64,000 nucleotides of DNA from Aciduliprofundum sp. MAR08-339 (GCF_000327505.1 NC_019942.1:1054001-1118000); one strand, 5' to 3'; numbered from the stretch's first letter, positions 30,143-52,084 are shown. A program made the numbers and translations. Notes: a model not told the origin generated them from the letters alone.

Positions 30143-30224
30143 TACTCTTTTCATTTCTTGCTCCTCTGATTTGTCCATCTTTAATGGTAAATTTTATATC
30201 TTTGCTGAAATTACCCGTAATTGC

Positions 30225-30362
30225 GGGGGCATGGGGTAGTCAGGCATCCTGGTGGGCTCCAGTTAGATGATGACAAGCGGGTCAGCTGAAAAATGATGAG
30301 TAACTGGAGCGCTGACCCACAGGAGAGACCCGCGGACCTGGGTTCGAATCCCAGTGCCCCCA
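30225..30362 (+). tRNA. tRNA-Trp (CCA) with intron
   Basis: Exon 1 is 30225-30262 and exon 2 is 30328-30362; the mature RNA is 73 nt. Acceptor GGGGGCA/TGCCCCC; anticodon stem GTGGG/CCCGC around CTCCAGA (anticodon CCA). The 65-nt intron lies at the archaeal 37/38 position and is itself a box C/D guide RNA. Splicing would need the tRNA endonuclease and RtcB; archease is encoded at 22.9 kb. Discriminator A at 30362. Exact cut sites could shift by one nucleotide because of a shared G. Confidence 0.95.
30263..30327 (+). ncRNA. Box C/D guide RNA within the tRNA-Trp intron
   Basis: Boxes are C ATGATGA (30267-30273), D' CTGA (30286-30289), C' ATGATGA (30293-30299) and D CTGA (30312-30315). By the N+5 rule the guide before D (CTGGAGC) pairs with the anticodon loop and targets C34; the guide before D' (GCGGGT) pairs with exon 2 and targets C39. 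Euryarchaeal tRNA-Trp introns are known to direct 2'-O-methylation at 34 and 39, so the whole arrangement is conserved here, with C rather than U at 39. Confidence 0.92.
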
Positions 30363-30435
30363 CTTCCTGGTAAACATTTTTCAAAATTGATAAAAATCGT
30401 TTTCTTTGAGTATGGCTGTCTTTTCTTGCAAAACC

Positions 30436-32772: not shown

Positions 32773-35700
32773 TTACTTTATAAATGGAGAGATGATTTTC
32801 TCCACAGCTTTAATTTTATCTTCCATAAATAAAATATGAGAATTCTCAAGCTGATCTTTGGACATATTAAACATGTATTTTAGAGTGTCATAAGGTGTGA
32901 CGGATATGATGTAAGAATTAAGTGTTATATTTCTCTCATATTTTTCATTTAATTTTTTCTCTAACTCCTTTAGTTTTCTATGAAGTTCAATTTTTTCTTT
33001 ATCTCTCTCGCTAAAATGTGCAAGTCCATGAGGCTCCACAAAAATAATATGTTCTATATCTTTTCTTTTAATCCACACTATGAAATCTGGGTAAAATCCA
33101 TAATTTTCAAAGAACCCAATTCCCTTTCCTCGGGTTCTATTTCTAAGTACGTATACGTATATGTCCTTTTTCTGCAATTGATTACTTATGGAAGACAAAT
33201 ATATTTTCAAGTATTCTATGAATTTTTCCTCTCCTTCATTGAGGCCTTTCGGAATTATTGTAATCTCCGGATGATCTTTTAAAAGAGGTTGATACAAATG
33301 CACATCAATGTAAACATTTTTTATTATGTTGTCGTACTCTCCATATAGAGGCTCGAAATCCTCATTTTCCAGTAAATCTACTAACTCCTTAAATTTTTGG
33401 AGATCTTTTAATTTAATTTTGATAGTGTACTTGTCTATGAGCAGCTCTTTATCACCTGAGCTTAGATAATCATACTTTAAGTTACTTGTTTCCCACATCA
33501 TTTTATGTTTCATATAGTATTTATACACATATTTTTTTAATATTCTTATGGTCAAATCTTCAAGATATTCCAAATCTTCCATTTTAGCAGGCATCACTTT
33601 CCTTGGATCTGGCAAGTACAAATCATAAATGAATTTTCCATTTACCTCTGGCATCAGTATATCCTTTAGAGCATCCTTTGATACTTTAAGATTATAGAGA
33701 CCTCTTTCCATTTTGTATTCTACTATTTCCCTGTATATGTAATTCCAATTTAATAAATCCAGATATCCGGGATCTATGTGCGAACTTATGTCTTTACTTT
33801 GAGCTAAAAGTGCCTTCTCCTCTTTGCTGCTGAGAATAGTTGCCCTTGGCCTGAGATCTAAGTTTATTTTAATATGCTCATCTTTTTCTAACTTCAAAAA
33901 GGCACTTTTTCTGAAATCAACTTTAGATGGTAACTTAGGAATGGTGAGCTTCTGAGATCCTTTTTCAATAATCTCATGAATTTTTGTTGGTATGAAAAAT
34001 TCTCTTTGAGGTTCTGTAGGCACGCCTTCTTTCTCCAGGTATCCTTTAAACACTTCCATATAATTTGCCTGTATGCCGAATATGTTCAAAGTTTCTAATA
34101 TGGATATGTGTTCTGGATGTGCTACATTGGGTATTGCAGTGCTTCTTTTCAGCATTTTGTTGTAGCCTTTGAGCCTCACGCCTCTGCCAAACAACTGAAT
34201 CACAAGGGGCCCCTCTGTTTTACCCATGTTTATGAGTCCCATTGTGGATACCCTCCAACTATTCCAACCTTCCACAAATTTTCGCGCTCCTATTAATATG
34301 TCAATGCTGGAGTTTTCTATACCTTCAAATAGGGAATTTGTGGTATCATCTCTTTCCACAACCATACCATATTCTTCTGCGTTATCTTTTATGAATTTCA
34401 GGAACCCCTCTTTATCTCCAATGTTGATGACTCCGAAGTATTTTCCAAAAGGACCTATTTTCAATCCAATTTCTCCCTCAGCATTTTTTATGTTTACCAG
34501 ATGAAGAGCATCTTTTGTGCTTATTTTGAAAATCTTTCTTTTCATATCTTCATAAATCTTCCTAGCACTTATTTCCCCTCCCCTCAAAAATGGAAAATTG
34601 GTCTCAGGGTAAGTTCTCGCAAAAACATCATTACCTTCTTTATCCAAAATTCCGGACCTTCCTTGTAGTACTCTCTCTATAGTTCTAATGGCCCAACTCT
34701 CATCATTGATGAATTTATTTATGAATTTTACCACTTTTAAAATATCAGAAACCGTTTTCCTGTCTTCTTTATTACCAAATATGTCTAATCCCTTCTTTTT
34801 TGATTCTTTTTTTCTATTCTTTGGTTGCACGGTACTTCCAATGAATACCCAGAGTGGCCGTTCAATATGGTACTTCTTTCTGTAACCCTCGTTAGAGCTA
34901 TATACTTCTACCTGCTCGTAAAAAGATAGAGCATTTGCAAGAAGAAATGTGTACTGCAAATCCTCCGTAAGTGTTCTTGTGTTTATTATCCGGTAATCCT
35001 TCCCATATCCATCTCCGTAAAAATATTTGTAGGAATAATCGAATATTATGGATTTTGCATAACTCTGTAAGAGTTCATCCCCTGGAGAGATATTTTTCAA
35101 TGCTTGGCCGAATGTGGCACTATACTCAAATCTGAAACCATTCTTAGATAAATCTTCTCTGTATTTTTTCCACGCGTCTCCACCGGCACCTTTATGTGCC
35201 TCATCGGCAAACACAATATTTTTGGAAGTCACACTCTTTGTGGATATGCTTACCCCTTCACCCTTCTTGTTTTCCACAAACTTGGTTATTTCAATGATTT
35301 TAACTGGAGGATAATCTCCAGAGAAAGAAGTGCCGCTCTCTTCTATGAAATAAACTGCGGGTATGCTGCTGAGCTCCAATTCCTTTTTGTGCTGTGCCGA
35401 TAGCCCGGCATTTGGAGTTATTAGAATGATGTTCTCATAATTAATTTTGTGAGGGCCTTTGTTGTATTTCAAAAATTGAAGGTAGTTTATGTGCATAATT
35501 ATGGTTTTACCGCTACCAGTGGCCATCCAGAATGCTAGAGTGCGGAGATCTTGTGGAGTGAAACCATACAGATTCGCTTCATCATCGTATTTGCGTTTGT
35601 TTTTCCATCCAAACTGTGTAATTTCGTTCATCAGTTGAATTGGGTCTTGGAAATATCTGTCTAAGAATATCTCCGTAAAGAGTACAGCCAAGTACTGAAA

Positions 35701-35997
35701 ATACTTCAAGTTTATTTGAAAATCCCTTTTAGCATTTATGTGTTTCAAATACCCATATATGTTCGCATCGTAATCATCCATTTTATCCCTGATACGCGGG
35801 TCAAGATTTTTTAATGACAAGATGCGGTGATACATATAACTGTGACCTTCCTCATCATAGCCATCTTCCACATCCTCAAATTGCTTCTTCAACTCCTTAA
35901 ATGAATCATATCCAAATAGGGAGCACATGTAATGGTTGAGCACCAGGTAATCATCAAGTCTTTTGGAATTCGTAGTTTTATTTTTTCCCCTGGGCAT
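32773..35997 (-). CDS. res: Type III restriction enzyme, Res subunit
   Basis: The 1074-residue protein has a superfamily 2 helicase core: Walker A WMATGSGKTIIMH (near residue 156), DEAHKGAG (near 265), and the later motif region GARKFVEGWNSWRVSTMGLIN and LFGRGVRLKG (motif VI). The C-terminus has a PD-(D/E)xK-like end: GFYPDFIVWIKR followed by IIFVEPHG. In type III systems Res translocates or switches on DNA and cleaves after meeting a second unmethylated site. It starts 6 nt after the Mod gene. Codon use is much richer in A/T than the backbone genes, suggesting transfer. Confidence 0.92.
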   Translation of the reverse strand: MPRGKNKTTNSKRLDDYLVLNHYMCSLFGYDSFKELKKQFEDVEDGYDEEGHSYMYHRILSLKNLDPRIRDKMDDYDANIYGYLKHINAKRDFQINLKYFQYLAVLFTEIFLDRYFQDPIQLMNEITQFGWKNKRKYDDEANLYGFTPQDLRTLAFWMATGSGKTIIMHINYLQFLKYNKGPHKINYENIILITPNAGLSAQHKKELELSSIPAVYFIEESGTSFSGDYPPVKIIEITKFVENKKGEGVSISTKSVTSKNIVFADEAHKGAGGDAWKKYREDLSKNGFRFEYSATFGQALKNISPGDELLQSYAKSIIFDYSYKYFYGDGYGKDYRIINTRTLTEDLQYTFLLANALSFYEQVEVYSSNEGYRKKYHIERPLWVFIGSTVQPKNRKKESKKKGLDIFGNKEDRKTVSDILKVVKFINKFINDESWAIRTIERVLQGRSGILDKEGNDVFARTYPETNFPFLRGGEISARKIYEDMKRKIFKISTKDALHLVNIKNAEGEIGLKIGPFGKYFGVINIGDKEGFLKFIKDNAEEYGMVVERDDTTNSLFEGIENSSIDILIGARKFVEGWNSWRVSTMGLINMGKTEGPLVIQLFGRGVRLKGYNKMLKRSTAIPNVAHPEHISILETLNIFGIQANYMEVFKGYLEKEGVPTEPQREFFIPTKIHEIIEKGSQKLTIPKLPSKVDFRKSAFLKLEKDEHIKINLDLRPRATILSSKEEKALLAQSKDISSHIDPGYLDLLNWNYIYREIVEYKMERGLYNLKVSKDALKDILMPEVNGKFIYDLYLPDPRKVMPAKMEDLEYLEDLTIRILKKYVYKYYMKHKMMWETSNLKYDYLSSGDKELLIDKYTIKIKLKDLQKFKELVDLLENEDFEPLYGEYDNIIKNVYIDVHLYQPLLKDHPEITIIPKGLNEGEEKFIEYLKIYLSSISNQLQKKDIYVYVLRNRTRGKGIGFFENYGFYPDFIVWIKRKDIEHIIFVEPHGLAHFSERDKEKIELHRKLKELEKKLNEKYERNITLNSYIISVTPYDTLKYMFNMSKDQLENSHILFMEDKIKAVEKIISPFIK

Positions 35998-36003
35998 TGA
36001 TTA

Positions 36004-39003
36004 TCACGCTCCCAGCAACTTCATAAATTCCGTTTCAATGGGAATTGCATTTTCCACATAGCTGTCTCCATTCACATAAATGTAATCCGGCTCAGTATCT
36101 GCAATTTCATTCATTTTTTCCTCAATGTGGTTTTTGTCCTTCTCCAAGTCCAAATTTTCCGTGTTTCTCCACACAATAACTGTCAAGGATCCATCGCTCT
36201 TGGTGCCCACAACCCACACGTATTTTCTGTCCTCAAATCTCTCCACGAAGTATTTTTTCACATGCAAACCGAGCAGATAATTGAATGTTTCCGCCAAATC
36301 CACATTCTCATCCTTCTCCATACCATTCTCCAGAATTCTCAGTTTGTAGGAGAATGGTTTCTGGAATTTGTCAATGTTGAGCCGGCTCATACTTCCACGT
36401 GTACCGTACTCAAGCATGTGGAATATGTAATCCTCAAATTCTGCGAGTTTTGCCTGCCTACCCTCCTCATTGGCAAACACAATGTTGTTCAGGGTGTCCT
36501 CGTACTGCTCCAGGGTGTGGTATTTGAAGAAGCCACTGCCACTCCAATTAATATCATTACTTAGATGTGATCTCCTTCTCTTCCCTAATATATTAAATTC
36601 TTTATCTCCATACAAAACTATTTTTAATCTACCCAACAAGCCCAGTTTTTTCTCACTGTTATCATGGTAAAACTCACTAAAATATTCTTCTAACTCAATT
36701 CCAATCCATTTTCTTCTCAATTTATGTGATACTACCAAAGTAGTTCCAGATCCAGCAAAGAAGTCCATTACTAGATCTCCTTTTTCTGTAGTAGATTGGA
36801 GTATCCTTCTTAATAAATTCTCAGGTTTTTGTGTATTAAAACTTACATTCTCAGTTGTTCTTAATTCTGATTGCGTAAAATGGTAAATATCGTTCCATAT
36901 ATCACCAATAGGGTAAACTTTTTCCTTTACTTCTAACTTTTGAAGAACAAGATTTCCTTTATCGTTATATTTCTCTACGAAAAATTCAAAATCTTCAAGT
37001 CTTTGACCTCTCTTAGTCCCCTCTTTAGTGTAAGAAATCAAATCCAACCAGCCTATTGGTAATTTTGTTGTGTTTCTATTTGGCTTCCACAGTTTGATAA
37101 ATTTGTAATCATTTATATATGAGCATTGAAATATTGTATCATGCTGTCTTACATATTTTTCTCCAAAACTTTTGTAGCTAAATAGTCCACTCTCATCATC
37201 TTTTGTTGCATTGGTATTCCAAATAATTTCGTTAATAACTGGAAACATTGAATTTACTAAATATCTTCCTAAATAATTAGCGTTCCAATCCAAATGGATA
37301 AAAAATGATCCGGTTTCTCTCATAAACTCTCTTGCTAATTTTATTCTGTCTATTAACAATGTAAGCCAAGATGAAGTTTGGTAATTATCTTTATAAATGA
37401 AGTCTTTTCCTGTTTTAAATGGTGGATCAATGTAAATCGTCTGCACCTTCTCGTAGTATTTATTCAAAAGCAAATTCAACGCCTGCCAGTTTTCACTTTT
37501 AATCAAAACTCCATCCAAAATATCATCCAGATAGTTGTTTTTGCTCAGAGCCACCAGCAAATTCCACTTGAATTCCTCATCAAAGTACTTAGTATCTATA
37601 GGTAACTTTTTCCACACATTTCCCTCCAGAGTGCGCTTTTCAATGAGATCCTCTTTTCTACTTACTTCCACGCCAAATAATTCTTTCCATTCTTCAATCT
37701 GCTTTTCATTATTCAATATATCATCAATTATACCTTCCAGAAATTCCTCACCTGCAAACTCTTTTATTTTATCCAGAGTGATCACATACTCAGTTTTTAG
37801 CACAAACTTCTTCTTCTCCCACAGCATTTTCTCAAAATCTTCAATTTCGGCCAGGAATTCAATTATTTTCTGGCTCAAATTTCTGAACACCTTTACTCTT
37901 CTCATGAGTTTTCGCAATTCATTCTCGTCCATACTCTCAATGCTCTCCATATTCAGCATCTCATTCTTTATGTAGAAATCAAGCTCGGTCAGGAAAAATT
38001 TTTTCAGATTTTTGTGTATGAAATAATCCTTGGTGTTCTTGGCCACATATTGCGCTATGCGTGCTTCCAAAACCGTTCTATCGCTTTCTTCACCGGATTT
38101 CTTCACAAACTTCTTGTTCAACTGCTTCTTAATATCAGGATGATTGTTCTCCTGCAACCATTCATTTATCCTTTTTACAGCATCTTCTTGCAGAGTGGTT
38201 TTTACGGTTGTTTTGTTGGTTCTATCACCAAATCCAAATCTTTGGTACTCTTCATTTGTTAATTCCCTGAACTCAAAGTATATGTTCACACTCTTACCCT
38301 TCACTTCCATAAAATCCTCTGCAGAGAGAATGAAATACTTGTCCTTTCCCTTCACATTATTTTTATCAATATGCGCCTCCCTCAACTTGAAATTTATTTC
38401 GTAAGCACCGGCACGAAATGTGTATTTCTGGAAGTACTCGGTTGTTTTCACATAGTACTGATCTTTATTTGCCCAGTAAAGCATCACTTCTTCCCCATTG
38501 TAAGGCACTATGTAATCGTTGGATTTTGTGTATCTTCTTATGGGAATCAAATCTCCATCTTGATAATATCTATCAAAAAACTCGTAAATCCTGCTGAAAA
38601 TCTCTCTTTTATCTGCTGTCACATTTTCCACATTTTTCAAAGCTTTCTGTTTCTCCTTATACTTCTTTACGATAGGCACATTTTCAAACATTGGATTTAT
38701 GTTACCATCTTCATCAAACACACCCTCGCCTAGATTCTCCACAACTTCCCTCCTCAAATCTTTTAATTCCTTCTCCAAATCTTTTGCATCCTGTTTGTAG
38801 AGCTCTTTGAATTCCTCCTCAACAGCATTTATTAAATCGTTTTCTATGAAATTCCTTATTTCTTCCCTTTTGAAATTCATTATTTTGTAGATGCCAAAAT
38901 CCAAATCTTCCACATCAAATCTGAAAAGATTCAAAAGCAAATCTTTGAGTTTTCTCTCCATGTTTTCTTCTTCCTTCTTCAAATTTTCCACATTACCATA
39001 CAT
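36004..39003 (-). CDS. mod: Type III DNA methyltransferase, Mod subunit (long form)
   Basis: The 999-residue protein has beta-class amino-methyltransferase order: DPPF (motif IV, near residue 525) then DFFAGSGTT (motif I, near 747). About 500 residues precede the methylase, far longer than classical Mod (600-700 total), and appear mostly helical (LEKELKDLRREVVENLG). The C-terminal 200 residues form a further domain. It modifies adenine and provides target recognition for Res. The frame extends 45 codons upstream into the helicase gene, but ATG 39003 follows GAAGGTGAG at proper spacing, so I start there, immediately at the helicase stop. Confidence 0.9.
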   Translation of the reverse strand: MYGNVENLKKEEENMERKLKDLLLNLFRFDVEDLDFGIYKIMNFKREEIRNFIENDLINAVEEEFKELYKQDAKDLEKELKDLRREVVENLGEGVFDEDGNINPMFENVPIVKKYKEKQKALKNVENVTADKREIFSRIYEFFDRYYQDGDLIPIRRYTKSNDYIVPYNGEEVMLYWANKDQYYVKTTEYFQKYTFRAGAYEINFKLREAHIDKNNVKGKDKYFILSAEDFMEVKGKSVNIYFEFRELTNEEYQRFGFGDRTNKTTVKTTLQEDAVKRINEWLQENNHPDIKKQLNKKFVKKSGEESDRTVLEARIAQYVAKNTKDYFIHKNLKKFFLTELDFYIKNEMLNMESIESMDENELRKLMRRVKVFRNLSQKIIEFLAEIEDFEKMLWEKKKFVLKTEYVITLDKIKEFAGEEFLEGIIDDILNNEKQIEEWKELFGVEVSRKEDLIEKRTLEGNVWKKLPIDTKYFDEEFKWNLLVALSKNNYLDDILDGVLIKSENWQALNLLLNKYYEKVQTIYIDPPFKTGKDFIYKDNYQTSSWLTLLIDRIKLAREFMRETGSFFIHLDWNANYLGRYLVNSMFPVINEIIWNTNATKDDESGLFSYKSFGEKYVRQHDTIFQCSYINDYKFIKLWKPNRNTTKLPIGWLDLISYTKEGTKRGQRLEDFEFFVEKYNDKGNLVLQKLEVKEKVYPIGDIWNDIYHFTQSELRTTENVSFNTQKPENLLRRILQSTTEKGDLVMDFFAGSGTTLVVSHKLRRKWIGIELEEYFSEFYHDNSEKKLGLLGRLKIVLYGDKEFNILGKRRRSHLSNDINWSGSGFFKYHTLEQYEDTLNNIVFANEEGRQAKLAEFEDYIFHMLEYGTRGSMSRLNIDKFQKPFSYKLRILENGMEKDENVDLAETFNYLLGLHVKKYFVERFEDRKYVWVVGTKSDGSLTVIVWRNTENLDLEKDKNHIEEKMNEIADTEPDYIYVNGDSYVENAIPIETEFMKLLGA

Positions 39004-39004
39004 C

Positions 39005-41779
39005 TTACTCACCTTCATCACCCATTCTGAATTTACATATGTCCCGGTAATCGCAATTTTCACAGAAATCACCGGGGTTGGGGTTATAGTTCTGATTTTG
39101 AATTTGAGATAGTAAATTCTCCGTATATATTTTTGCATTGCGGAGAGTATCTTGGCTCACGTCAATCTCATCTATTTCTCCTTCACCTAAATATACAACG
39201 CTTCCCCTTCCCACATTATATCCGAGCCCTTTGAGCCCTAAGGCATATAAACGTACCTGAAGGGCCACATGCTCCGGTTTGGTAACTTTTGTGGATGTTT
39301 TGTATTCCCTCACCTCCACAACATCACCCTTATCTATGATTACATCCACTTTACCTGCTATTGTGGAATTTTTGCTGGGAAATTCCAATCTGTATTCCAC
39401 CTCTGCCACAGAGGAAATGTCTTCCATATGATCTGCCACATAATTCACAAGAATATTCTCCGCACTTTTCTTTAGTTTTTGAGCTTTATATTTCGGTGCA
39501 TAAGGTAAGTAGAATCCTTTATCTACAGCCTCTAATATTGCACTTAATGGATTATACCCTTCTTTATGGAGTTCTACAGCTCTGCGTAAGGAGTAATGAA
39601 GTGCATTCCCATATCCCAGTTCCTCTGCAAGTGGAGCTTGATAGTTCCATACATGTCTTAATCTGTAAAAGTAGGGGCACTTCACATAATCCACTATTTC
39701 ACCTGCCTCAAATGTGGATACCTCGATCTCACCGGTAACCACTGAAGGTGAATCAGTATCTATTTTGAATTTATCTTCTGCTCTTAAAATCTCCAAATTT
39801 CTGGGATTATCTTCCAGGACCTCCCGTAGGAAGCAGCTGATAGTTGCCTTCTTAACATTATATTTCTCAAAAAAGCTTAGCACCAATGTACTTTTTGCTC
39901 TTGTTGCAGCCACATAAAACAATCTTCTTTCATCTTCCATTTTTGTATCGTATCTACGTGCAGGGAATAGATCCCTGTCTATGAGCCACATTCTCTTTTC
40001 CGCTATATGTGAAGAGGGAAATCTTCTACTCACTAATGATGGTATGAACACAACATGCCATTCAAGACCTTTTGCTTGGTGAATTGTGGTTACCTGCACA
40101 GCATCCACTGCTCTGATGTCCTCACTTGGTTGCTCCTCATAGGCTGTGGATGCATATGTTATAATGTACCATATTAATCCCTTTAGCAAAGAATTGTTCC
40201 ATTTAAGTTTGTTCCCCCCCAATCTCACAGCATTCTCATAATCTCCCAGTAAAACGCTAAATCTTCCAAGATTTGCCATTATGGCAGCATGGAGTTTGTT
40301 AGAGGGTTCCAAATCCTTAAACTTGAGAATGTTAAGAACCTCATGATAAACCTCTTGGAAGTTATGGTATTTGCCATTTAACACATCCTCCCTCCAGATC
40401 TCTAATTTTTCTTTAACCTGATCTTTTTCATCTAAATCCAACAATTTTGTGGCACTTATCCAATCATTCAATGCAGAGTCTAATAGTTCTTCATTTTCCA
40501 CTTTACCGTGGTAATCATACCAAAATCCCTCATCCCAGAGCCAGCAGAATAACTTGCCTAGAGCCAAGGCCTCCTCCCTTCTAAATAAACCAATAGTCCC
40601 TCCTACGATGTATGGGATGTCCCTACTTTTTAGTTCTTGGATAATGGGATCGCCTGAGGTAGTCACACTTCTTAGAAGAATACCAAAATCTGAATACCTC
40701 ATATTCTTCTCACTTACTAAATTCTCTATCTGATCTACAATCCATTTTGCTTCCTCTTTTGGAGTTTTTGCTTTTGCCACATACACATGTCCATCTTCAT
40801 CTTTCACAGGTGTCATTTCATCAAATTTCCTTTTTTCAAATCTGTTAGCAATTTTATTTCCTACTTCTACTATTCTTTTGGTGCTCCTCCTATTTTCAGG
40901 AATAACTATAGTTTCCGCATCTGGATATATTTCCGTGAATCTTTCAAAACACTCATCATCCGAACCTCTCCACTGATAAATGGTTTGTCTTGGATCTCCT
41001 ACAACCATAATGCTAGCATTTTTTCCAACTAATTTTATTAGCTCCTCTTGGGCATGATTTATATCCTGATACTCATCCACAATGAGATACTTCACCATGG
41101 GTAATCTTTCCGGATTTTCCTTTATATTTTTAACTGCAAGATAAATGAGGCGTCCAAATGTAAGTTTGTGGTACTCATCTAAAGTACTTTCATATTTTTC
41201 AAACACATGGTAAAATTCTGGATTTTTCTTGGATAACTTGTCTCTTGGAATAATCTCATCATACACAACATTTACTGCCTCTAGGAATTTTTTGCACTTG
41301 TCTCCATAATTTTGTCCCCTTAGTTTATTCACTCCTATTCCCCAACCTCTCTTCATAACAAAAGCCATCTCTTGTTTATCGTCCATAACATCGTAATTTC
41401 CATATCCGAAATAATCTTGAAGTATGCGAAGGGCGTAGCTGTGGATTGTCCCAATATACATTTTGCCTAACTTATGGGCGTATTCTTCGCCTTTTATATC
41501 AATTATGCGGGAGTATATTCTGGATTTCATAGATTGTGCGGCCTTCTCCGTAAATGTAAATGCTACGATGGTATCTGGTTCAACATTTTTGCATAACAAT
41601 AAATACAGAATTCTTCTTGTTAGAGTTTCTGTTTTACCAGCTCCTGCACCTGCTAAAATACGTATATGTTTTGCACTGCTCTCTACGGCACTTTTTTGAG
41701 CAGGAGACAAAGGAGAATTTTGGAAGGGTCCATTGATAATCATATTATAAATTTCATCTGAACAAATTTCATTCACCAT
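39005..41779 (-). CDS. UvrD/Rep-family helicase fused to RecB/Cas4-like nuclease
   Basis: The 924-residue protein starts with a superfamily 1 helicase: Walker A GAGAGKTE (44-51), VDEYQDINHAQ (motif II, near 230), GDPRQTIYQWRG (motif III), TTIHQAKGLEW (motif V) and VAATRAK (motif VI). The last 230 residues are a PD-(D/E)xK nuclease (GKVDVIID...VVEVREYKTS) with four cysteines positioned as an Fe-S cluster, one in VKCPYFYRL and three in CENCDYRDIC. This is the AddAB/Dna2/Cas4 style of end-processing enzyme. Its stop and the Mod start are adjacent, so the three genes form one operon. A role in defence with Mod/Res is inferred. Confidence 0.9.
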   Translation of the reverse strand: MVNEICSDEIYNMIINGPFQNSPLSPAQKSAVESSAKHIRILAGAGAGKTETLTRRILYLLLCKNVEPDTIVAFTFTEKAAQSMKSRIYSRIIDIKGEEYAHKLGKMYIGTIHSYALRILQDYFGYGNYDVMDDKQEMAFVMKRGWGIGVNKLRGQNYGDKCKKFLEAVNVVYDEIIPRDKLSKKNPEFYHVFEKYESTLDEYHKLTFGRLIYLAVKNIKENPERLPMVKYLIVDEYQDINHAQEELIKLVGKNASIMVVGDPRQTIYQWRGSDDECFERFTEIYPDAETIVIPENRRSTKRIVEVGNKIANRFEKRKFDEMTPVKDEDGHVYVAKAKTPKEEAKWIVDQIENLVSEKNMRYSDFGILLRSVTTSGDPIIQELKSRDIPYIVGGTIGLFRREEALALGKLFCWLWDEGFWYDYHGKVENEELLDSALNDWISATKLLDLDEKDQVKEKLEIWREDVLNGKYHNFQEVYHEVLNILKFKDLEPSNKLHAAIMANLGRFSVLLGDYENAVRLGGNKLKWNNSLLKGLIWYIITYASTAYEEQPSEDIRAVDAVQVTTIHQAKGLEWHVVFIPSLVSRRFPSSHIAEKRMWLIDRDLFPARRYDTKMEDERRLFYVAATRAKSTLVLSFFEKYNVKKATISCFLREVLEDNPRNLEILRAEDKFKIDTDSPSVVTGEIEVSTFEAGEIVDYVKCPYFYRLRHVWNYQAPLAEELGYGNALHYSLRRAVELHKEGYNPLSAILEAVDKGFYLPYAPKYKAQKLKKSAENILVNYVADHMEDISSVAEVEYRLEFPSKNSTIAGKVDVIIDKGDVVEVREYKTSTKVTKPEHVALQVRLYALGLKGLGYNVGRGSVVYLGEGEIDEIDVSQDTLRNAKIYTENLLSQIQNQNYNPNPGDFCENCDYRDICKFRMGDEGE

Positions 41780-41945: not shown

Positions 41946-42236
41946 TCATTTCTCAGACCTTAACAAATTAACAATATTCTCCATATGATCTTTACTGAAA
42001 AAAATAGTTGCAGGTTTTCCGGCGATATCGATTTCTATCTCATATCCCATATTTGTTGGTCTATTTGGGACATACTCAGCCGTATATTCATCATTCTTTA
42101 TCTTTTCAGCGAGGATCAATATATTAGTTAAATCATATCCTCCAACTTTCATACGGGTATGACAATTAGGACACAAGGAGAGCGCATTAAACTTACTATC
42201 GGCCCAAGTATGTTTTCCTCTCACCTCATTATACAT
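41946..42236 (-). pseudogene. HNH nuclease fragment (N-terminus missing)
   Basis: The 96-codon frame (open up to a stop at about 42256) begins with AVHMYNEVRGKHTW...FNALSLCPNCHTRM, which fits the second half of an HNH motif (H, N, then C-x2-C-H). The upstream Cys pair and first His strand expected of an HNH nuclease are missing, and the sequence upstream is the palindromic element at 42280-42381. The C-terminal 55 residues (YEIEIDIAGKPATIFF...) are unassigned. I read it as a gene truncated at the element; it could also be an intact small protein. Confidence 0.5.
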
Positions 42237-42279: not shown

Positions 42280-42381
42280 TTTCGGACAACGTTTTGCGGA
42301 CATATGAAGTTGGTGAACTAAGTGAGCCAATTTGGGCGGATGTGCGAAGCACCATAGCCGTATGTCCGCGGTTAGGCGAAG
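42280..42381. repeat. Structured palindromic element (attC-like)
   Basis: Inner arms GCGGACATA (42296-42304) and TATGTCCGC (42361-42369) are perfect inverted repeats around a 56-nt centre that itself contains the hairpin GTGC-TTC-GCAC. Outer arms TTCGGACAAC (about 42281-42290) and GTTAGGCGAA (42371-42380) are imperfect inverted repeats (7 of 10). GTTAGGC fits the integron attC core GTTRRRY and the overall shape resembles an attC site, but no integrase is in the window. It lies between the HNH fragment and the ATPase/helicase operon. Confidence 0.5.
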
Positions 42382-42393
42382 CGGTTGCAACAA

Positions 42394-43977
42394 TCATTTT
42401 ATACCCCCCATTTTGTCTCGTATATTTTTGGGCAAGAAATAGTAAAAATATCCTTTTGCATTATGACTTTTGAACTTTGCTGGAAGTGCTTTAGATTTTT
42501 CAGATTTTACGTAAATCTTATCACCTGATACGTGAACAACCTTCCAAACTTTCCCAGCAAGCACGAAAATATCATCAATAGGATATTGTACTTCACCAAC
42601 GATTTGCTTAGAGCTAACATCGACAACTTTTAATGTTTTGGTAGATGGAATATTTGAGTGAATTTTACCCCTTTCGCCCCAATCCATCAGTTTAGTTGTT
42701 GCATACCACTTATCATATCTTTTCTCTATCCATCCTTTTGTTTCTAAATGACTCAATATGTCTTTTAGATCACCTTCTGAACAAAATCCGTTAAAAAGTT
42801 CAATAAAATAATCGCTTTCTAATCCGCTTGGATTTGCATAAAGAGATGAGAATATTTGTTGGACAACTACAGATAAATCGGGTGAATATTCTACTGGTTC
42901 CACCAACCCTTCAATTGCTACCTTAAACATCCTCTCAAACATTGCTCTCTCCTCTTCAGAACTAAATATAGCAAAAACCCTACATTTCTGTGTACGACGA
43001 TTGCCCCTTCCAATCCGCTGAAGCAACGATGAGATACTCCAAGGGATCTCAGCAAGCACAATAGCATCTATGTCTCCGATGTCAATACCAACTTCAAGTG
43101 TCATGGTAGCGACGCAAACTCCATATTGGGTCTCTTTCATAAAACTCTCTGCTTCCTTCCGAATTTGCTTGCTTAAACTTCCATGATGAACAACGACTAT
43201 ATCGTTACCCCATAATCTTTTACATTCTTTTGCAACATTCTCTACATTAGCCCTCTTATTGCAGAAAATTAATAACTTCTTTAATTTCTCTTCTCTCGCG
43301 TAATCAAAAACTTCTCTGAGTGATTTTACAAGAGTATATTTAATTTCTCGTTTAGCGGAGGCTATAATAACTTCAAAGTCTTTTAAATACCTGCTACCCA
43401 CGCTTTCAGGGTCGGCAATTGTGGCAGATAGTGCATACATGTTAAAATCTGTCTCTGCGATATATTCTAATCTCCTTAAAAGTAATCTTAGCTGGTCACC
43501 TCTATAGGTATTATCAATGAGGTGTATCTCATCTAATATTACTGCTTTTAAATTCTTAAAACTTGAAGGATATCTGCATATTAAAGAGTCCAAGGATTCG
43601 GGAGTAGTTATCAAAAAATCTGGAAGTTTATCTGGATTAAACTGTGGCTTGTCGCCAGTTTTTAATGATAGCGAGACATTAAGTTCCTCCAATTGCTCTT
43701 TCAGTCGATAATACATATCATTTACTAATGCTCTGGTAGGACAAACATAAAGTATTGACAAACCTTTCCAGTTTTCATTAAGCAATCTCTCGATTAATGG
43801 TGCTACAACGGCTTCTGTTTTTCCACTTGCTGTAGAGGATACTATGATGGCATTTTTTCTTTTTAAAATCAGAGGGATTGCTTTTTCTTGGATAGGAAGT
43901 AATTTTCCGAATCTACCAAAGAAAGTCGTCCATGTTCGTTTTAATTTCAACTTTAATTCTTTTTGAGCAGTTATCAT
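42394..43977 (-). CDS. Lhr/BrxHI-like superfamily 2 helicase
   Basis: The 527-residue helicase has SSTASGKTEAVVAPLIE (Walker A near residue 50), CPTRALVNDM (Ia), TTPESLDSL, ILDEIHLID (motif II near 150), ALSATI (III), FCNKRANVE (IV), VATMTLEVGIDIGDID (V) and LQRIGRGNRR (VI). Gly-Asp-Ile-Asp after motif V and the short C-terminal extension resemble Lhr and the BREX helicase BrxHI, though it is shorter than full Lhr. It overlaps the upstream ATPase gene by 4 nt (ATGA) and ends 13 nt before the inverted-repeat end. It is the last gene of a four-gene operon with two BrxD-like ATPases. Confidence 0.85.
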   Translation of the reverse strand: MITAQKELKLKLKRTWTTFFGRFGKLLPIQEKAIPLILKRKNAIIVSSTASGKTEAVVAPLIERLLNENWKGLSILYVCPTRALVNDMYYRLKEQLEELNVSLSLKTGDKPQFNPDKLPDFLITTPESLDSLICRYPSSFKNLKAVILDEIHLIDNTYRGDQLRLLLRRLEYIAETDFNMYALSATIADPESVGSRYLKDFEVIIASAKREIKYTLVKSLREVFDYAREEKLKKLLIFCNKRANVENVAKECKRLWGNDIVVVHHGSLSKQIRKEAESFMKETQYGVCVATMTLEVGIDIGDIDAIVLAEIPWSISSLLQRIGRGNRRTQKCRVFAIFSSEEERAMFERMFKVAIEGLVEPVEYSPDLSVVVQQIFSSLYANPSGLESDYFIELFNGFCSEGDLKDILSHLETKGWIEKRYDKWYATTKLMDWGERGKIHSNIPSTKTLKVVDVSSKQIVGEVQYPIDDIFVLAGKVWKVVHVSGDKIYVKSEKSKALPAKFKSHNAKGYFYYFLPKNIRDKMGGIK

Positions 43978-45263
43978 CTTAGTAACTCCTCCATTGATTT
44001 ATTTGGATAAAAACGTATAAGATCAAGAACCTCCACAACTCCTTTTATAAATTTGCGAGTTTTGTCGTTGGGTATCTTATCAAATAATAGTTCCGAGTTA
44101 TAGTTTATACTGATGTCTTCATATGCATCTTTGTAATATTTAATTATTTTATTTAATAGCTCTTTAAATGCATCATTGCTAATTACACCAATGTCGATCT
44201 TATTTTTATAATCCCATATAGGTGTAAAAGCAAATAAAACTTTTAAATGGGACGGTAGCTTCCAAGCAAACCTAATCGGATTATTTCTTGGAAAACCACA
44301 ATAAGTTAATCCCGTATTTTTTCCTTTCAAGTTTTCTATTTTCTCAGTTAAAAGTAAATTGAAGTTATTTGACAAAAGTATAATTCCTTTAATAAAGTTC
44401 ATCCCTTTTTCAGACTGATATTTGTAGTCATACTCACTTATATTCTCTGCTTCATCAAATAATATTAAAAAACCTCTCATTTTTAGAATTTCATATGCTG
44501 CCCATGAGATTCCATTCAAAATATAACAATATATATTAGCTGCCGTCCCAGATTTATATAGAGATGGACGATACCAATTATATTCTCCCTCAATCCATTC
44601 CCAGATAATTTCTTCACTTAATCGTTGATATAACCAAGTATTTCTCTTTTTAAATTCGTCAATGAGCTTTTTAAAATATATGTGGTTTTCCAAATATGGG
44701 GATTTGTTACTGTTTATCACTTCTCTTATAAAATCACGAAATCCTAGATATTTACCATTCTTCTTCCATTTGATGTTCTTTATAATCTGCTGATATATTT
44801 GATACGGTCTGAAAAATGGATTTTCATTACGACCTATTTCCACGAGTGAAACCATCCAATTATTATTAAGAGAAATAGAATATATATATTCTAGAAGATG
44901 TGTTTTTCCAGAACCATAATCACCCCGGATTATAAATGTCCCATCCTGTTCATTATTAAGCCACTTTTTTATTTCGTTTATTTCTTCTTCACGTCCAAAT
45001 GTAAATTCCTCCACGTATTCATGAGGAACGATACCCAATCTTAAAGCTTCAATTATTTGTCTTGCTTTAAATTGTTTTTCAGAAAGCACTCGTTTTGTAT
45101 GTTTATGTTTAACCAGAATAGGGGCTTCTGATAAGAATCTAACTTCATCTTTTCTTACCCATCTCCTAATTCCATCCTCGAATTCTACATATAGCTCAAA
45201 TCCCCCATATCTCTCCCGCAGTATTTTTCCTTTTCCGTAAGTTCTGTGCTCTATCAACTGCAT
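43974..45263 (-). CDS. BrxD-like P-loop ATPase with N-terminal SH3/CarD-like domain
   Basis: The 429-residue protein has a small N-terminal beta domain (1-45; HRTYGKGKILRERYGG...VEFEDGIRRWV, the look of a CarD/Tudor-like SH3 barrel), then a FGREEE entry, Walker A GDYGSGKTHLL (114-124) and Walker B FLILFDEAENIS (near 270). This layout fits the DUF2791 ATP-binding family that includes BREX BrxD. It lies between a second such ATPase and the helicase, overlapping the helicase by 4 nt. Two different ATPases of one family in tandem suggests a hetero-oligomeric ring or a loader pair; that is inference. Confidence 0.7.
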   Translation of the reverse strand: MQLIEHRTYGKGKILRERYGGFELYVEFEDGIRRWVRKDEVRFLSEAPILVKHKHTKRVLSEKQFKARQIIEALRLGIVPHEYVEEFTFGREEEINEIKKWLNNEQDGTFIIRGDYGSGKTHLLEYIYSISLNNNWMVSLVEIGRNENPFFRPYQIYQQIIKNIKWKKNGKYLGFRDFIREVINSNKSPYLENHIYFKKLIDEFKKRNTWLYQRLSEEIIWEWIEGEYNWYRPSLYKSGTAANIYCYILNGISWAAYEILKMRGFLILFDEAENISEYDYKYQSEKGMNFIKGIILLSNNFNLLLTEKIENLKGKNTGLTYCGFPRNNPIRFAWKLPSHLKVLFAFTPIWDYKNKIDIGVISNDAFKELLNKIIKYYKDAYEDISINYNSELLFDKIPNDKTRKFIKGVVEVLDLIRFYPNKSMEELLR

Positions 45264-45272
45264 ATCACATCC

Positions 45273-46502
45273 CTATCCCATACCTATGTCTTCAGGTGTA
45301 ACGGTTTTTCCCGTTTTGCGTAATTTATGGAAGGTTTTAATTATGTCCTGGACAAATAGCCTTTTATATCCAATTTCCAGCTTTCTCTTATAAGCTGCTT
45401 CAGCAATGTTCTTTATTGTTTCCTTAAGCACATTGTCATCAAATTTTATACTATAGGCTATTTCATAGATTCTGGCTAATTTTTGACCTATCTCTTTTAA
45501 AAGTTCAACGGGTTCAATCGGGATGTTATCAAGGTATATTTTAACTCCAGTTGGGTTTATTTCTGTATCAAAAATCGTAGCAACTCTCTGTCGTAAAGCT
45601 TCATAAATTTGTGAATGCCCTTCAAGAAAATTTTCATCAGGTACTGCATAGAACCACATAGTATTCTTGAAATTGGCATGTCCGCATTCATCTATTAGCT
45701 CCCTTAAATTATTTAAAAGAAGACCTTTTTGTTTAGAAGACATGCTTGGTGTTTGCTCGGCTTCGTCCATTAAAACAATAACTCCCGAATACCCTATTTC
45801 TCGTATCCACTGGACAAGAGATCGAATCATTTTAAAAGCGGTGCTTTTGTCTATCTTTTCAAAAATTTTAAAGTCTTTCAACATATTTTTAGGAGGGTTT
45901 TCGCCTTTCAACCACTGCATTATTAGCGTAAAATCTTCTTCACGTTTTTCAGATAAAGCTATAAACGCCTCCTTCACAGCATTTCTAAAGCTTGTGCTTT
46001 CATAAGGTCCTAATGATGATGCGTAGGTATGTAGTTCCCTTAATACAGCGTCACCAGACAATCTTTTTGAGAGCTCTTGGTATTTCTCACCATACCACTT
46101 TTTTATAACGGCTTCTATGCCTCTATCGTAGCCAGTCAAAAGTTTTTTGGGCTTTTGTGGATAAACTAAGTTTGTCACTATGGATTTATACACTTGCTCT
46201 AATTTGTGAAATGGTGTTTGTTCAGGACTCAGCATTATGAAAGATGTTATGTAATTGTAATTCCAAGCCCTTTCTCTGATACTATATAAAAAATGTGTTT
46301 TTCCACCACCATATATGCCAATTACCATTTTAAATGCTGAACCACCCTCTCTTATGAAACTTCTAAGATATTCCTCATCTATCGTATCCAAATAGATGTC
46401 CAGTCCCGCTGTAAAAAACTGGAATCCGTACTCTGGCGGATTTCCTTGACCTCCCACTATCTCTATAATCTTTCTTGCTACATTGGGATCTATATCGTTC
46501 AT
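45273..46502 (-). CDS. BrxD-like P-loop ATPase
   Basis: The 409-residue protein has Walker A GIYGGGKTHFL (62-72), SPEQTPFHKLEQVYKSIV after it, and Walker B VIVLMDEAEQTPS (near 243), followed by AVPDENFLEGHSQIYEALRQR. This is the DUF2791/BrxD pattern; the segment IGIYGGGKTHFLYSIRERA is especially close to what I know of that family. A C-terminal helical domain follows. It overlaps the upstream coiled-coil gene by 4 nt and is 9 nt before the second ATPase, so translation is coupled. In BREX these ATPases are needed for defence, but their action is unknown. Confidence 0.75.
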   Translation of the reverse strand: MNDIDPNVARKIIEIVGGQGNPPEYGFQFFTAGLDIYLDTIDEEYLRSFIREGGSAFKMVIGIYGGGKTHFLYSIRERAWNYNYITSFIMLSPEQTPFHKLEQVYKSIVTNLVYPQKPKKLLTGYDRGIEAVIKKWYGEKYQELSKRLSGDAVLRELHTYASSLGPYESTSFRNAVKEAFIALSEKREEDFTLIMQWLKGENPPKNMLKDFKIFEKIDKSTAFKMIRSLVQWIREIGYSGVIVLMDEAEQTPSMSSKQKGLLLNNLRELIDECGHANFKNTMWFYAVPDENFLEGHSQIYEALRQRVATIFDTEINPTGVKIYLDNIPIEPVELLKEIGQKLARIYEIAYSIKFDDNVLKETIKNIAEAAYKRKLEIGYKRLFVQDIIKTFHKLRKTGKTVTPEDIGMG

Positions 46503-47344
46503 GTTCTCACCTCCCTAAACTTAATGTGTGATATATAATTACCATCGCCTTTTTCATTGGATGGGATCCAGAGGAAGTCAGATTTTTTTCTGGTGTATGC
46601 TCGTGTAGCGGTGATAAGGTTTAATTCCATATCATTAAGTCTTCTTTCTTTCAATCTATATAAGTCATAACTAAAGAAAACGCGACCATACTCCTTGTAA
46701 TTGTTTTTTGTTGGATTTATTTTAAACTTTTTATCTTGGATGAGAAATGCATACTCAAAAAGAATATCAGAAATTGGTATTTGGTCGCCTATTTTTTTAT
46801 TTTGACGATATGCAGAAATCCTGTATGCCTCATATACTTTTGATAGAAATTCATTATCATTAAAATGTCGTTGAGTAAGTTTCTTATGTATAGTGCTTAA
46901 TTTTTTAACTACTTCTTCTGGAGCTAATTTACATGTAGCTAATTTCTCTTGCTGTGGGCCATACCATATCAAAACTTTAAAGTTTTCTAAATCTACTTCA
47001 AGCGTATAAAAAGATACCTTAAGCAAGGGGTAATGACCCCTTAGTTCAAAACCCATTTTCCTCATGTCTTCTTCTAATTTTTGTCCAAAAGTATTTTTTG
47101 CTTCCTCTTCCCACTCAGCAACTCTTGATTTAATCGATTGGACATCCTCTTCTATTCTTTCTTTTACGAAATCTTCTAATTTGCTTTGTTTTAGTGTTTT
47201 TTCAATCTTGAGCACCTCTTGTTTTATTTTATGCAGATTGGTTAGTGGATCACTTTGATACTTATCGATATTCTTAACAAATTTTAATAGATTTTGAAGA
47301 TTGGCCTTTTCTTTGGATAATATTTTTAAGATTTCCTCATCCAT
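46499..47344 (-). CDS. Coiled-coil protein of the ATPase/helicase operon
   Basis: The 281-residue protein has an N-terminal Lys/Glu-rich coiled coil (about 1-90), a central beta-rich part (KVSFYTLEVDLENFKVLIWYGPQQ, key block LKVSFYTLEVDLEN) and a helical/beta C-terminal domain (FFSYDLYRLKERRLND...FLWIPSNEKGDG). I do not recognise a family. AAGGTGAT lies 5 nt before ATG 47344. It overlaps BrxD-like ATPase 1 by 4 nt. As the invariant partner of the ATPases it may be the sensor or substrate-binding subunit; that is inference. Confidence 0.65.
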   Translation of the reverse strand: MDEEILKILSKEKANLQNLLKFVKNIDKYQSDPLTNLHKIKQEVLKIEKTLKQSKLEDFVKERIEEDVQSIKSRVAEWEEEAKNTFGQKLEEDMRKMGFELRGHYPLLKVSFYTLEVDLENFKVLIWYGPQQEKLATCKLAPEEVVKKLSTIHKKLTQRHFNDNEFLSKVYEAYRISAYRQNKKIGDQIPISDILFEYAFLIQDKKFKINPTKNNYKEYGRVFFSYDLYRLKERRLNDMELNLITATRAYTRKKSDFLWIPSNEKGDGNYISHIKFREVRT

Positions 47345-47561
47345 CTTTTATCACCTTCTTATTGTTTAATGTAACCGTTTCGCCTAACTTCTGTTGTACG
47401 AACTCTTTATTCTCATAACCTCCCACACCAGAGTTATTCGGGAGTTTTATCGCGCTACAACGCATCAACGAAGATATAAACATATAGGATAAAAACCTTG
47501 CTCCGAAGGATCTATTTACAAATTTCAAGAATGGGGCAGAGATGTCCCACGAGTACCGCAT
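47337..47561 (-). CDS. Short hypothetical frame at the head of the ATPase operon
   Basis: A 74-codon frame overlapping the coiled-coil gene by 8 nt. Its ATG lies 26 nt from the TATA-like GTATATAAAG (47592-47584), as in a leaderless gene, and the same TATA box in the other direction serves the gene at 47616. Against it: no recognisable domain, and the inverted-repeat copy at 47371-47388 lies inside it. It may be a decayed gene tail or chance. Confidence 0.3.
   Translation of the reverse strand: MRYSWDISAPFLKFVNRSFGARFLSYMFISSLMRCSAIKLPNNSGVGGYENKEFVQQKLGETVTLNNKKVIKDG
47371..47388. repeat. Inverted copy of the 42371-42388 sequence
   Basis: On the minus strand this reads GTTAGGCGAAACGGTTAC, matching plus-strand 42371-42388 (GTTAGGCGAAGCGGTTGC) at 16 of 18 positions, in opposite orientation. 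The two copies bracket the four-gene ATPase/helicase operon (42394-47344) closely on both sides. Flanking sequence (47393-47461) also has short inverted arms GTTGTA/TACAAC and CTCCC/GGGAG. Confidence 0.5.
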
Positions 47562-51361: not shown

Positions 51362-52084
51362 TCAAAGCATGTACCTGCCTCCGTTTATGTCCACCACTGT
51401 GCCGTTCATGTAATCGTTTTCGAGCAGGAATACCACCGCGTGGGCTATCTCCTCAGGCCTGGCCACTCTTCCGAGGGGTGTGAGTTTTGAGAGCTGTTCC
51501 TTCTTCTCCTCACTCAAAAGATCCGTATCCACAGGTCCTGGAGCAACAGCATTCACCAGTATATTGGGTGCAAGCTGGGATGCGAGTGCAAACGTGAGCC
51601 CGATTATTCCTGCCTTGGAAGATGCATAGTGCACCCCAACAGTCCCTCCGTTCCTGCCGGCTATTGAAGCCAGATTTACTATTTTTCCCTTCTTTATATA
51701 CTTTACCGCTTCCTGGGTTACAATGAATGCACCCTTAAGGTTCACGTTGAGCACGTGATCCCACTCTTCATCATCTATCTCGCTGAATTTGTGCTTATCT
51801 CCAAGTACGCCCGCGTTGTTGACTAGGATATCAATCCTGCCAAAATGATCAACTATCCTCTTCACACCTTCTTTAACCTCATTCCTGTTTGATACATCAA
51901 ACTGGACGGTCATTGCCCTAACCCCATATCTCTCAGCCAGGCCCTTTGTTCTCTCGGCATCTTCATCATTTTTCCTGTAATTTATGGCCACATTGCATCC
52001 CCTCTCTGCCAGTGCCAGCGTTATGGCCCTTCCAATTCCTCTATCTCCCCCGGTTACGAGGGCGACCTTCCCTTTCAGATCCAC
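51362..52084 (-). CDS. Short-chain dehydrogenase/reductase (FabG-like)
   Basis: The 240-residue SDR starts at GTG behind GGAGGTGA. It has the dinucleotide motif TGGDRGIGRAI (residues 11-21), NNAGVLG (about 90), the catalytic Ser in NLASIAG, Tyr-x3-Lys in YASSKAG (about 154) and AVAPGPVDTD. It resembles 3-oxoacyl-ACP reductases, but in archaea lacking fatty-acid synthesis such enzymes act on other alcohols/ketones; the substrate is unknown. Confidence 0.88.
   Translation of the reverse strand: MDLKGKVALVTGGDRGIGRAITLALAERGCNVAINYRKNDEDAERTKGLAERYGVRAMTVQFDVSNRNEVKEGVKRIVDHFGRIDILVNNAGVLGDKHKFSEIDDEEWDHVLNVNLKGAFIVTQEAVKYIKKGKIVNLASIAGRNGGTVGVHYASSKAGIIGLTFALASQLAPNILVNAVAPGPVDTDLLSEEKKEQLSKLTPLGRVARPEEIAHAVVFLLENDYMNGTVVDINGGRYML

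What the first reader, a model, noticed from the sequence alone, without database searches (positions are those of the whole stretch)
42371..47388. Four-gene coiled-coil / BrxD-like ATPase x2 / Lhr-like helicase module bracketed by inverted repeats: candidate undescribed defence system
The sequence shows four coupled genes on one strand (4-nt overlaps at two of the three junctions): an unrecognised 281-residue coiled-coil protein, two different P-loop ATPases of the BrxD (DUF2791) style, and an Lhr/BrxHI-like helicase. BREX type 2-like systems contain one BrxD and BrxHI, but here the hallmark methylase PglX and phosphatase PglZ are absent. The position next to restriction genes fits defence. 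The doubled ATPase and the new first subunit suggest a distinct minimal system.
Basis: partly seen in the sequence, partly recalled or inferred. Interest (0 to 1): 0.85.

Follow-up and report, generated by a model that had tools for sequence, protein, structure and literature searches.

The report
Four-gene twin-ATPase helicase system
An archaeal chromosome carries a compact four-gene set (an unknown helical protein, two related ATPases and a helicase) that also occurs, in the same gene order, in three unrelated bacterial phyla; it looks like a third, apparently undescribed relative of the Shango and BREX-2 anti-virus systems, though no one has yet shown that it stops a virus.

Summary
In detail: four coupled minus-strand genes (42394-47344), two 4-nt overlaps and one 9-nt gap. 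Both ATPases match BrxC/BrxD (PF10923), and the helicase matches BrxHI and Shango SngC best. The 281-aa first protein (P1) matches no library. No PglZ passes cut-off anywhere in the genome.

The same four genes, in the same order, were found in three bacteria: an Oligoflexales MAG (27/46/36/39 % identity), a Desulfomonile tiedjei plasmid with no BREX genes, and an Aulosira plasmid directly after a BREX operon. The P1 proteins are homologous (hhalign 97 %) and unrelated to TerB. The four helicases form one clade (100/99) apart from BrxHI+SngC and from Lhr; the second ATPases group together (87/91). The window helicase is not truncated: the Oligoflexales one is also 528 aa.

The inverted repeats are real but weak, unique in the genome and not conserved with the module.

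Most likely function (inferred): an ORC/Cdc6-type twin-ATPase loader places an SF2 helicase on invading DNA, with P1 as adaptor or sensor. Defence activity is untested. Verdict: real, coherent, apparently undescribed; a new variant of the BrxD-BrxHI/Shango kind.

The parts
46499..47344 (-). P1: 281-aa first subunit; N-terminal long helices (about residues 3-96), central small beta region (101-128), C-terminal helical/winged-helix-like part; no known family
   Evidence: homologues in L017, L005, L004; low-confidence AF2 model pLDDT 66
45273..46502 (-). ATPase1 (AT1): BrxC/BrxD-family AAA+ P-loop ATPase, full length, Walker A GIYGGGKT, Walker B IVLMDEA
   Evidence: PF10923 4.5e-46, PADLOC BrxD 5.9e-39 and SngB 9.5e-22; 46 % identical to L017
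43974..45263 (-). ATPase2 (AT2): diverged BrxD-family ATPase with intact Walker motifs (GDYGSGKT, LILFDEA)
   Evidence: PF10923 6.2e-21 over residues 66-185; groups with AT2 of the other loci (87/91)
45129..45263 (-). N-terminal SH3/Tudor-like small beta-barrel of AT2 (residues about 1-45), shared with L017 AT2, absent in type B
   Evidence: five strands at pLDDT about 78; sub-threshold matches MSSS SH3 and PcrA_UvrD_tudor; alignments
42394..43977 (-). SF2 helicase, BrxHI/SngC/Lhr-like, 527 aa, without the C-terminal Lhr-like domain of BrxHI
   Evidence: natural length because L017 is 528 aa; trees
42371..42396 (.). left inverted-repeat arm GTTAGGCGAAGCGGTTGCAACAATCA, overlaps the helicase stop codon; role unproven
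47363..47388 (.). right inverted-repeat arm (reverse complement GTTAGGCGAAACGGTTACATTAAACA); role unproven

Best explanation
The four genes encode one horizontally moving, probably anti-invader, system: a third branch beside Shango (TerB-SngB-SngC) and the BrxD-BrxHI pair of BREX type 2. Shown: four homologous, co-linear genes in one archaeal and three bacterial phyla; two BrxD-family ATPases with intact nucleotide sites; a BrxHI/SngC/Lhr-like helicase with intact motifs; a new small first subunit in place of TerB; no need for BREX methylase or phosphatase. Inferred: ATPase1 and ATPase2 form a mixed AAA+ (ORC/Cdc6-type) ring or loader that puts the helicase on foreign DNA, as proposed for BrxD and BrxHI. 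P1, a long helical protein with a winged-helix-like end, is the adaptor or DNA/protein sensor; the SH3/Tudor domain on ATPase2 adds a contact to DNA or polymerase. The helicase then blocks the invader by translocating or unwinding (replication, circularisation or packaging), since none of the four proteins looks like a nuclease.
For: Families. Same four-gene order in L017, L005 and L004. P1 homology across types A and B: hhalign 97.2 %, 232 columns. Helicase clade 100/99 separate from BrxHI+SngC and Lhr. AT2 clade 87/91. Low-GC island next to Type III R-M, absent beside the orthologous flanking gene in two relatives. D. tiedjei plasmid carries it near AbiEi/AbiEii genes. BrxD-BrxHI are described as a tightly linked dyad with proposed helicase loading (PMC12839542). 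Helicases SngC, BrxHI, DruE and DpdJ form a potential clade defined by anti-phage systems (PMC12278908). Shango with one such ATPase and helicase blocks phages (PMC10250203). Type III Druantia, whose DruE is in that helicase clade, stops phage DNA circularisation and replication (PMC13316683).
Against: No experiment on any member. Only four loci were found, none in phage or virus collections, and the family is absent from all other genomes sampled in the phylum, so the census is thin. P1 and ATPase2 structures were low confidence, so adaptor and loader roles are guesses. The L017 operon sits among housekeeping genes, not an obvious defence island. Lhr-type helicases also serve DNA repair.
Confidence: 0.64

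Rival explanations
1. It is a diverged Shango system in which the TerB subunit degenerated or was replaced; function and mechanism are simply Shango's.
For: Same ATPase-helicase families (SngB 9.5e-22, SngC 3.5e-75); same position of the first subunit; classical Shango is present elsewhere in the phylum.
Against: P1 is not TerB (hhalign probability 0.1-0.2 %). Two ATPases instead of one. The helicases do not group with SngC, which groups with BrxHI (98/96 with Lhr outgroup). P1 has homologues in four phyla with the same partners, so it is not a decayed TerB.
Confidence: 0.15
2. It is an accessory or orphaned part of BREX type 2 (BrxD-BrxHI dyad duplicated) that needs PglX/PglZ elsewhere.
For: PF10923 and BrxHI matches; in Aulosira the module follows a BREX operon that already has its own PglZ, BrxD and BrxHI.
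Against: No PglZ over cut-off in the window's genome; none on the whole 27-kb D. tiedjei plasmid; none in the 8 kb of L017 examined. Helicase and ATPases fall outside the BrxD/BrxHI clades.
Confidence: 0.08
3. It is a DNA-repair or replication-restart module (Lhr-type helicase with ORC-like loaders), carried in islands for other reasons.
For: Lhr similarity of the helicase (best solved match 5v9x); ORC/Cdc6 nature of BrxD-type ATPases (PMC12839542); L017 copy lies among housekeeping genes.
Against: Sporadic distribution (1 of 400 class genomes), location on two plasmids and in a low-GC island; the genome already has two native Lhr helicases outside this clade.
Confidence: 0.1
4. The inverted repeats mark the module as a transposon-like or integron-like cassette of its own.
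For: Arms abut the module on both sides; 15/16 match not reached in 300 shuffles; the D. tiedjei module is also bracketed by repeats.
Against: No target-site duplication, no recombinase inside, single pair in the genome. The downstream stem is not better than shuffles (z -0.57). The D. tiedjei repeats have another sequence and recur elsewhere on that plasmid. None bracketing the module in Aulosira or L017.
Confidence: 0.07

Closest known systems
Shango (SngA TerB - SngB ATPase - SngC helicase)
   Same: A BrxD-family ATPase gene followed by a BrxHI-like helicase gene, preceded by a first subunit; minimal; no methylase or PglZ; anti-phage activity shown (PMC10250203).
   Different: First subunit is P1, not TerB; two ATPases; helicases form a separate clade; type A helicase lacks the C-terminal Lhr-like domain; AT2 of type A carries an SH3/Tudor domain.
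BREX type 2 (PglW, PglX, BrxC, PglZ, BrxD, BrxHI)
   Same: BrxD-type ATPase and BrxHI-type helicase as an adjacent pair.
   Different: No PglX, PglZ, BrxC or PglW in the operon; doubled ATPase; P1 not described in BREX; separate clades in both trees.
Coiled-coil/LRV protein + BrxD + BrxHI locus of Deinococcus psychrotolerans plasmid (L054)
   Same: BrxD-BrxHI pair without PglZ annotated next to it, with long helical front proteins.
   Different: Single ATPase per set; front proteins do not match the P1 profiles; ATPase and helicase are BrxD/BrxHI relatives.
Lhr helicases (archaeal/mycobacterial)
   Same: SF2 core plus Lhr-like winged-helix part (weak PF19306 match).
   Different: Much shorter; separate clade (100/100 for Lhr, 100/99 for the module's helicases); embedded in a four-gene operon.

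Membership tests
BrxC/BrxD ATPase family (PF10923) | profile score above the curated cut-off (22.2 bits) | tested here: met
   ATPase1 158 bits, ATPase2 75.2 bits
BrxD proper (NF033438 equivalog) | score above 350 bits | tested here: not met
   130.3 and 61.6 bits; outside the BrxD clade
BREX type 2 | PglZ phosphatase/nuclease in the system | tested here: not met
   No PF08665 match over cut-off in the genome; one 19.9-bit match about 460 kb away; none in the D. tiedjei plasmid annotation
BREX type 2 | PglX methylase in the operon | tested here: not met
   None of the four genes; the nearby methylase is Type III Mod (PADLOC MTase_III 1.1e-116). A whole-genome PglX profile search was not run
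BREX type 2 | BrxHI-type helicase | tested here: inconclusive
   Best PADLOC match is BrxHI, but the tree puts it outside BrxHI+SngC and the C-terminal domain is missing
Shango | TerB-domain first subunit (SngA) | tested here: not met
   No TerB_N/TerB/TerB_C match; hhalign 0.1-0.2 %; positive controls L007, L008, L019 and L023 match
Shango | single SngB ATPase | tested here: not met
   Two ATPases, neither in the SngB clade
Shango | SngC helicase | tested here: not met
   SngC groups with BrxHI to the exclusion of the module's helicases (98/96 with Lhr outgroup)
Shango / any defence system | protection against phage | not testable with these tools
   needs an experiment
P1-AT1-AT2-helicase system (as defined here) | four homologous genes in this order | tested here: met
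   window, L017, L005, L004
Transposon or integron cassette | terminal inverted repeats with target-site duplication or recombinase | tested here: not met

The most novel reading that the evidence does not exclude
A third, separately evolved class of ATPase-helicase immune system, spread across Archaea and Bacteria, that uses a two-ATPase ORC-like loader and a new adaptor/sensor protein to put a translocating helicase on invading DNA with neither a nuclease nor a self-marking methylase.
Probability: 0.42. Interest if true: 0.78.

Novelty: new variant of a known kind. Interest (0 to 1): 0.62.

Why it matters
BrxD-BrxHI/SngB-SngC pairs recur in unrelated immune systems, yet how they work is unknown. 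A compact four-gene version that exists without BREX or TerB shows that the ATPase-helicase pair is a portable core with exchangeable front subunits. It also offers small, partly thermophilic proteins for biochemistry of the loader-helicase idea. No library searched here (Pfam, NCBIfam, PADLOC, PHROGs) recognises the first subunit, so annotation calls these loci partial or wrong 'BREX'.

Tried and rejected
(1) Helicase truncated by the left repeat: suggested by the ~700-aa relatives in L004/L005, rejected because the closest relative, L017, is 528 aa and ends at nearly the same place. (2) attC-like integron site downstream: considered because of GTTAGGC/GCCTAAC boxes; strand fold not better than shuffles and no matching second R box; rejected. 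(3) P1 as diverged TerB: rejected. (4) P1 fold by Foldseek against PDB: no match at E <= 0.001. (5) P1 against PDB sequences: nothing below E 0.05. (6) Seven viral-contig scans and two phage searches: no relative. (7) AF2 of ATPase2: mean pLDDT 40, only the N-terminal barrel usable. (8) Published description: searches for Shango/BrxD/BrxHI/DUF2791/PF10923 found no four-gene twin-ATPase system; the library lacks most subscription papers and says it holds no bioRxiv preprints, so a prior description cannot be excluded. (9) HNH-like ORF 41946-42236 as a fifth gene: lacks the N-terminal HNH half and matches only below cut-off; not seen after the helicase in L017, L005 or L004.

Full report
WHAT IS THERE. 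The window lies in a 1.437-Mb single-contig archaeal genome (from memory the size and GC fit Aciduliprofundum sp. MAR08-339, not tested). A low-GC stretch (about 30-42 % against ~46 %) runs from about 30.4 to 51 kb. Inside it, on the minus strand, are four tightly coupled genes: P1 (46499-47344, 281 aa), ATPase1 (45273-46502, 409 aa), ATPase2 (43974-45263, 429 aa) and a helicase (42394-43977, 527 aa), with an overlap of 4 nt, a gap of 9 nt and an overlap of 4 nt.

FAMILIES. ATPase1 matches BrxC/BrxD (PF10923) over its whole length (E 4.5e-46). ATPase2 matches only over its P-loop part (6.2e-21). Both score far below the BrxD equivalog cut-off (130 and 62 bits against 350). PADLOC ranks the helicase as BrxHI (4.8e-80) and SngC of Shango (3.5e-75); ATPase1 also matches SngB (9.5e-22). 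P1 matches nothing over a curated cut-off in Pfam or NCBIfam and nothing of note in PADLOC or PHROGs. Walker A/B motifs of both ATPases and helicase motifs I, II and VI are intact. ATPase2 starts with a ~45-residue five-stranded barrel (pLDDT ~78) with sub-threshold similarity to MutS2-associated SH3 and PcrA/UvrD Tudor domains.

THE SAME FOUR GENES ELSEWHERE. A scan of GTDB genome contigs with a three-sequence P1 alignment returned one locus, L017, an Oligoflexales MAG. It carries P1, ATPase1, ATPase2 with the same N-terminal domain, and a 528-aa helicase, in that order: 27, 46, 36 and 39 % identity to the window proteins. Plasmid searches gave two more: Desulfomonile tiedjei pDESTI.01 (279, 430, 397, 701 aa) and Aulosira laxa plasmid3 (279, 420, 398, 697 aa). 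I call the window and L017 type A (short helicase, SH3/Tudor on ATPase2) and the plasmid pair type B (long helicase, no barrel). P1 of type A and type B are homologous: hhalign 97.2 %, E 3e-11, 232 columns; hmmsearch E 1e-8 for the best cross-match. The other three proteins match across types with E 4e-19 or better.

NOT BREX. No PglZ passes cut-off anywhere in the window's genome. The whole annotated 27-kb D. tiedjei plasmid has no BREX gene apart from the two ATPases themselves, which are labelled 'BREX system ATP-binding domain-containing', and the 8 kb of L017 examined have none (its left side is the contig end). Only Aulosira has a BREX operon, directly upstream, and that operon has its own PglZ, BrxD and BrxHI, so there the four-gene set is an addition. 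The 2026 census of BREX (PMC12839542) places BrxD and BrxHI as a dyad in type 2 and, in the sections read, does not mention a twin-ATPase set.

NOT SHANGO EITHER, BUT CLOSE. Shango is TerB-ATPase-helicase and is anti-phage (PMC10250203). In 390 genomes of the window's phylum, 17 others have a match to the ATPase1 profile, all in one family of the same class. Where the neighbourhood could be read these are Shango loci: SngB- and SngC-like genes, with TerB_N/TerB_C confirmed in the two first subunits I scanned. None of 293 or 400 sampled genomes encodes P1 apart from the window's own. P1 is not a TerB protein. In maximum-likelihood trees the module's four helicases form a 100/99 clade while SngC and BrxHI group together (98/96), with native Lhr helicases as a further clade. 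Among the ATPases, the second ATPases of all four loci group (87/91), SngB is a 100/100 clade and BrxD a 96/96 clade (with the Deinococcus sequence); ATPase1 of type A and of type B are separate well-supported pairs whose joint origin is unresolved. The data therefore describe a third, internally coherent set with two subtypes. The tree is small and branches are long.

THE HELICASE IS NOT BROKEN. Against the 700-aa relatives it looked truncated exactly at the left repeat. L017 shows that a 527-528-aa helicase without the C-terminal Lhr-like domain (domain layout of BrxHI from PMC12839542) is the natural form of type A.

THE INVERTED REPEATS. The arms 42371-42396 and 47363-47388 are real: 15 of 16 core bases complementary, not reached in 300 shuffles of the flanks, and the only exact-class pair in the genome. 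But there is no target-site duplication, no recombinase between them, and no such repeat around L004 or L017. D. tiedjei has bracketing repeats of a different sequence that also recur elsewhere on the plasmid. I treat the arms as possible insertion scars, not as part of the system.

CONTEXT. Downstream on the same strand lie a UvrD helicase fused to a PD-DExK nuclease domain (39005-41779) and a Type III restriction-modification pair (36004-39138, 32773-35997). In the two relatives compared, the island is missing next to the orthologue of the right-flanking gene (51362-52084). In D. tiedjei the module is near an AbiEi/AbiEii pair. This fits mobile defence cargo, but L017 sits beside housekeeping genes.

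HOW IT MOST LIKELY WORKS. Shown here: conserved set, intact ATPase and helicase motifs, no recognisable nuclease. From the literature: BrxD-type proteins are ORC/Cdc6-like AAA+ ATPases thought to load BrxHI (PMC12839542); SngC, BrxHI, DruE and DpdJ helicases form a potential anti-phage clade (PMC12278908); type III Druantia, with a helicase of that clade, blocks phage DNA circularisation and replication (PMC13316683). Inferred: ATPase1 and ATPase2 form a mixed loader, P1 is the adaptor or sensor, and the helicase acts on the invader's DNA. I give 0.64 to 'one distinct anti-invader system working this way in outline', with the structural claim (one conserved four-gene unit) near certain and the mechanism steps clearly weaker.

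NOVELTY AND LIMITS. I found no description of this set in the papers searched; subscription papers and bioRxiv preprints are not covered. The census rests on four loci because the broad genome scan could be run only once and needs near-exact peptide words. I file it as a new variant of a known kind (BrxD-BrxHI/Shango-type systems), possibly a class of its own.

Noticed in passing
window 30215-30363: An intron-containing tRNA-Trp that ARAGORN missed (read from the sequence); Rfam finds box C/D RNA sR3 at 30263-30317, inside the intron. It marks the left edge of the low-GC island.
   Followed up: partly
window 39005-41779 and 32773-39138: UvrD-type helicase fused to a PD-DExK/Cas4-like nuclease domain, directly upstream of and overlapping a Type III mod-res pair; may be an accessory of that R-M system.
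   Followed up: no
window 41946-42236: 96-aa ORF with only the C-terminal half of an HNH motif (LCPNCH), between the module and the UvrD gene; probably a remnant.
   Followed up: partly
L054 1993-9407: Deinococcus psychrotolerans plasmid: long coiled-coil proteins (one with LRV repeats) before a BrxD ATPase and BrxHI helicase, no PglZ annotated in the region, second partial copy nearby: another possible BREX-less BrxD-BrxHI system.
   Followed up: partly
L049 4762-24287: Aulosira laxa plasmid3 carries a BREX operon with PglZ, BrxD and BrxHI followed after 172 nt by the complete four-gene set.
   Followed up: partly
L019-L035: 17 genomes of one family in the window's class carry Shango-like loci (SngB/SngC-like genes, TerB_N/TerB_C in those scanned), indicating that Shango is common in some archaea.
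   Followed up: partly
L057 1090, 10126, 15682-15706, 23805: Dispersed palindromic repeat CTTTAAGTGCNTACTC on D. tiedjei pDESTI.01, five matches against 0.4 expected, two places bracketing the module.
   Followed up: partly
G000:C1:636834-637070 (locus L058): Sub-cut-off PglZ-like match (19.9 bits) in a 353-aa ORF, about 460 kb from the module.
   Followed up: no
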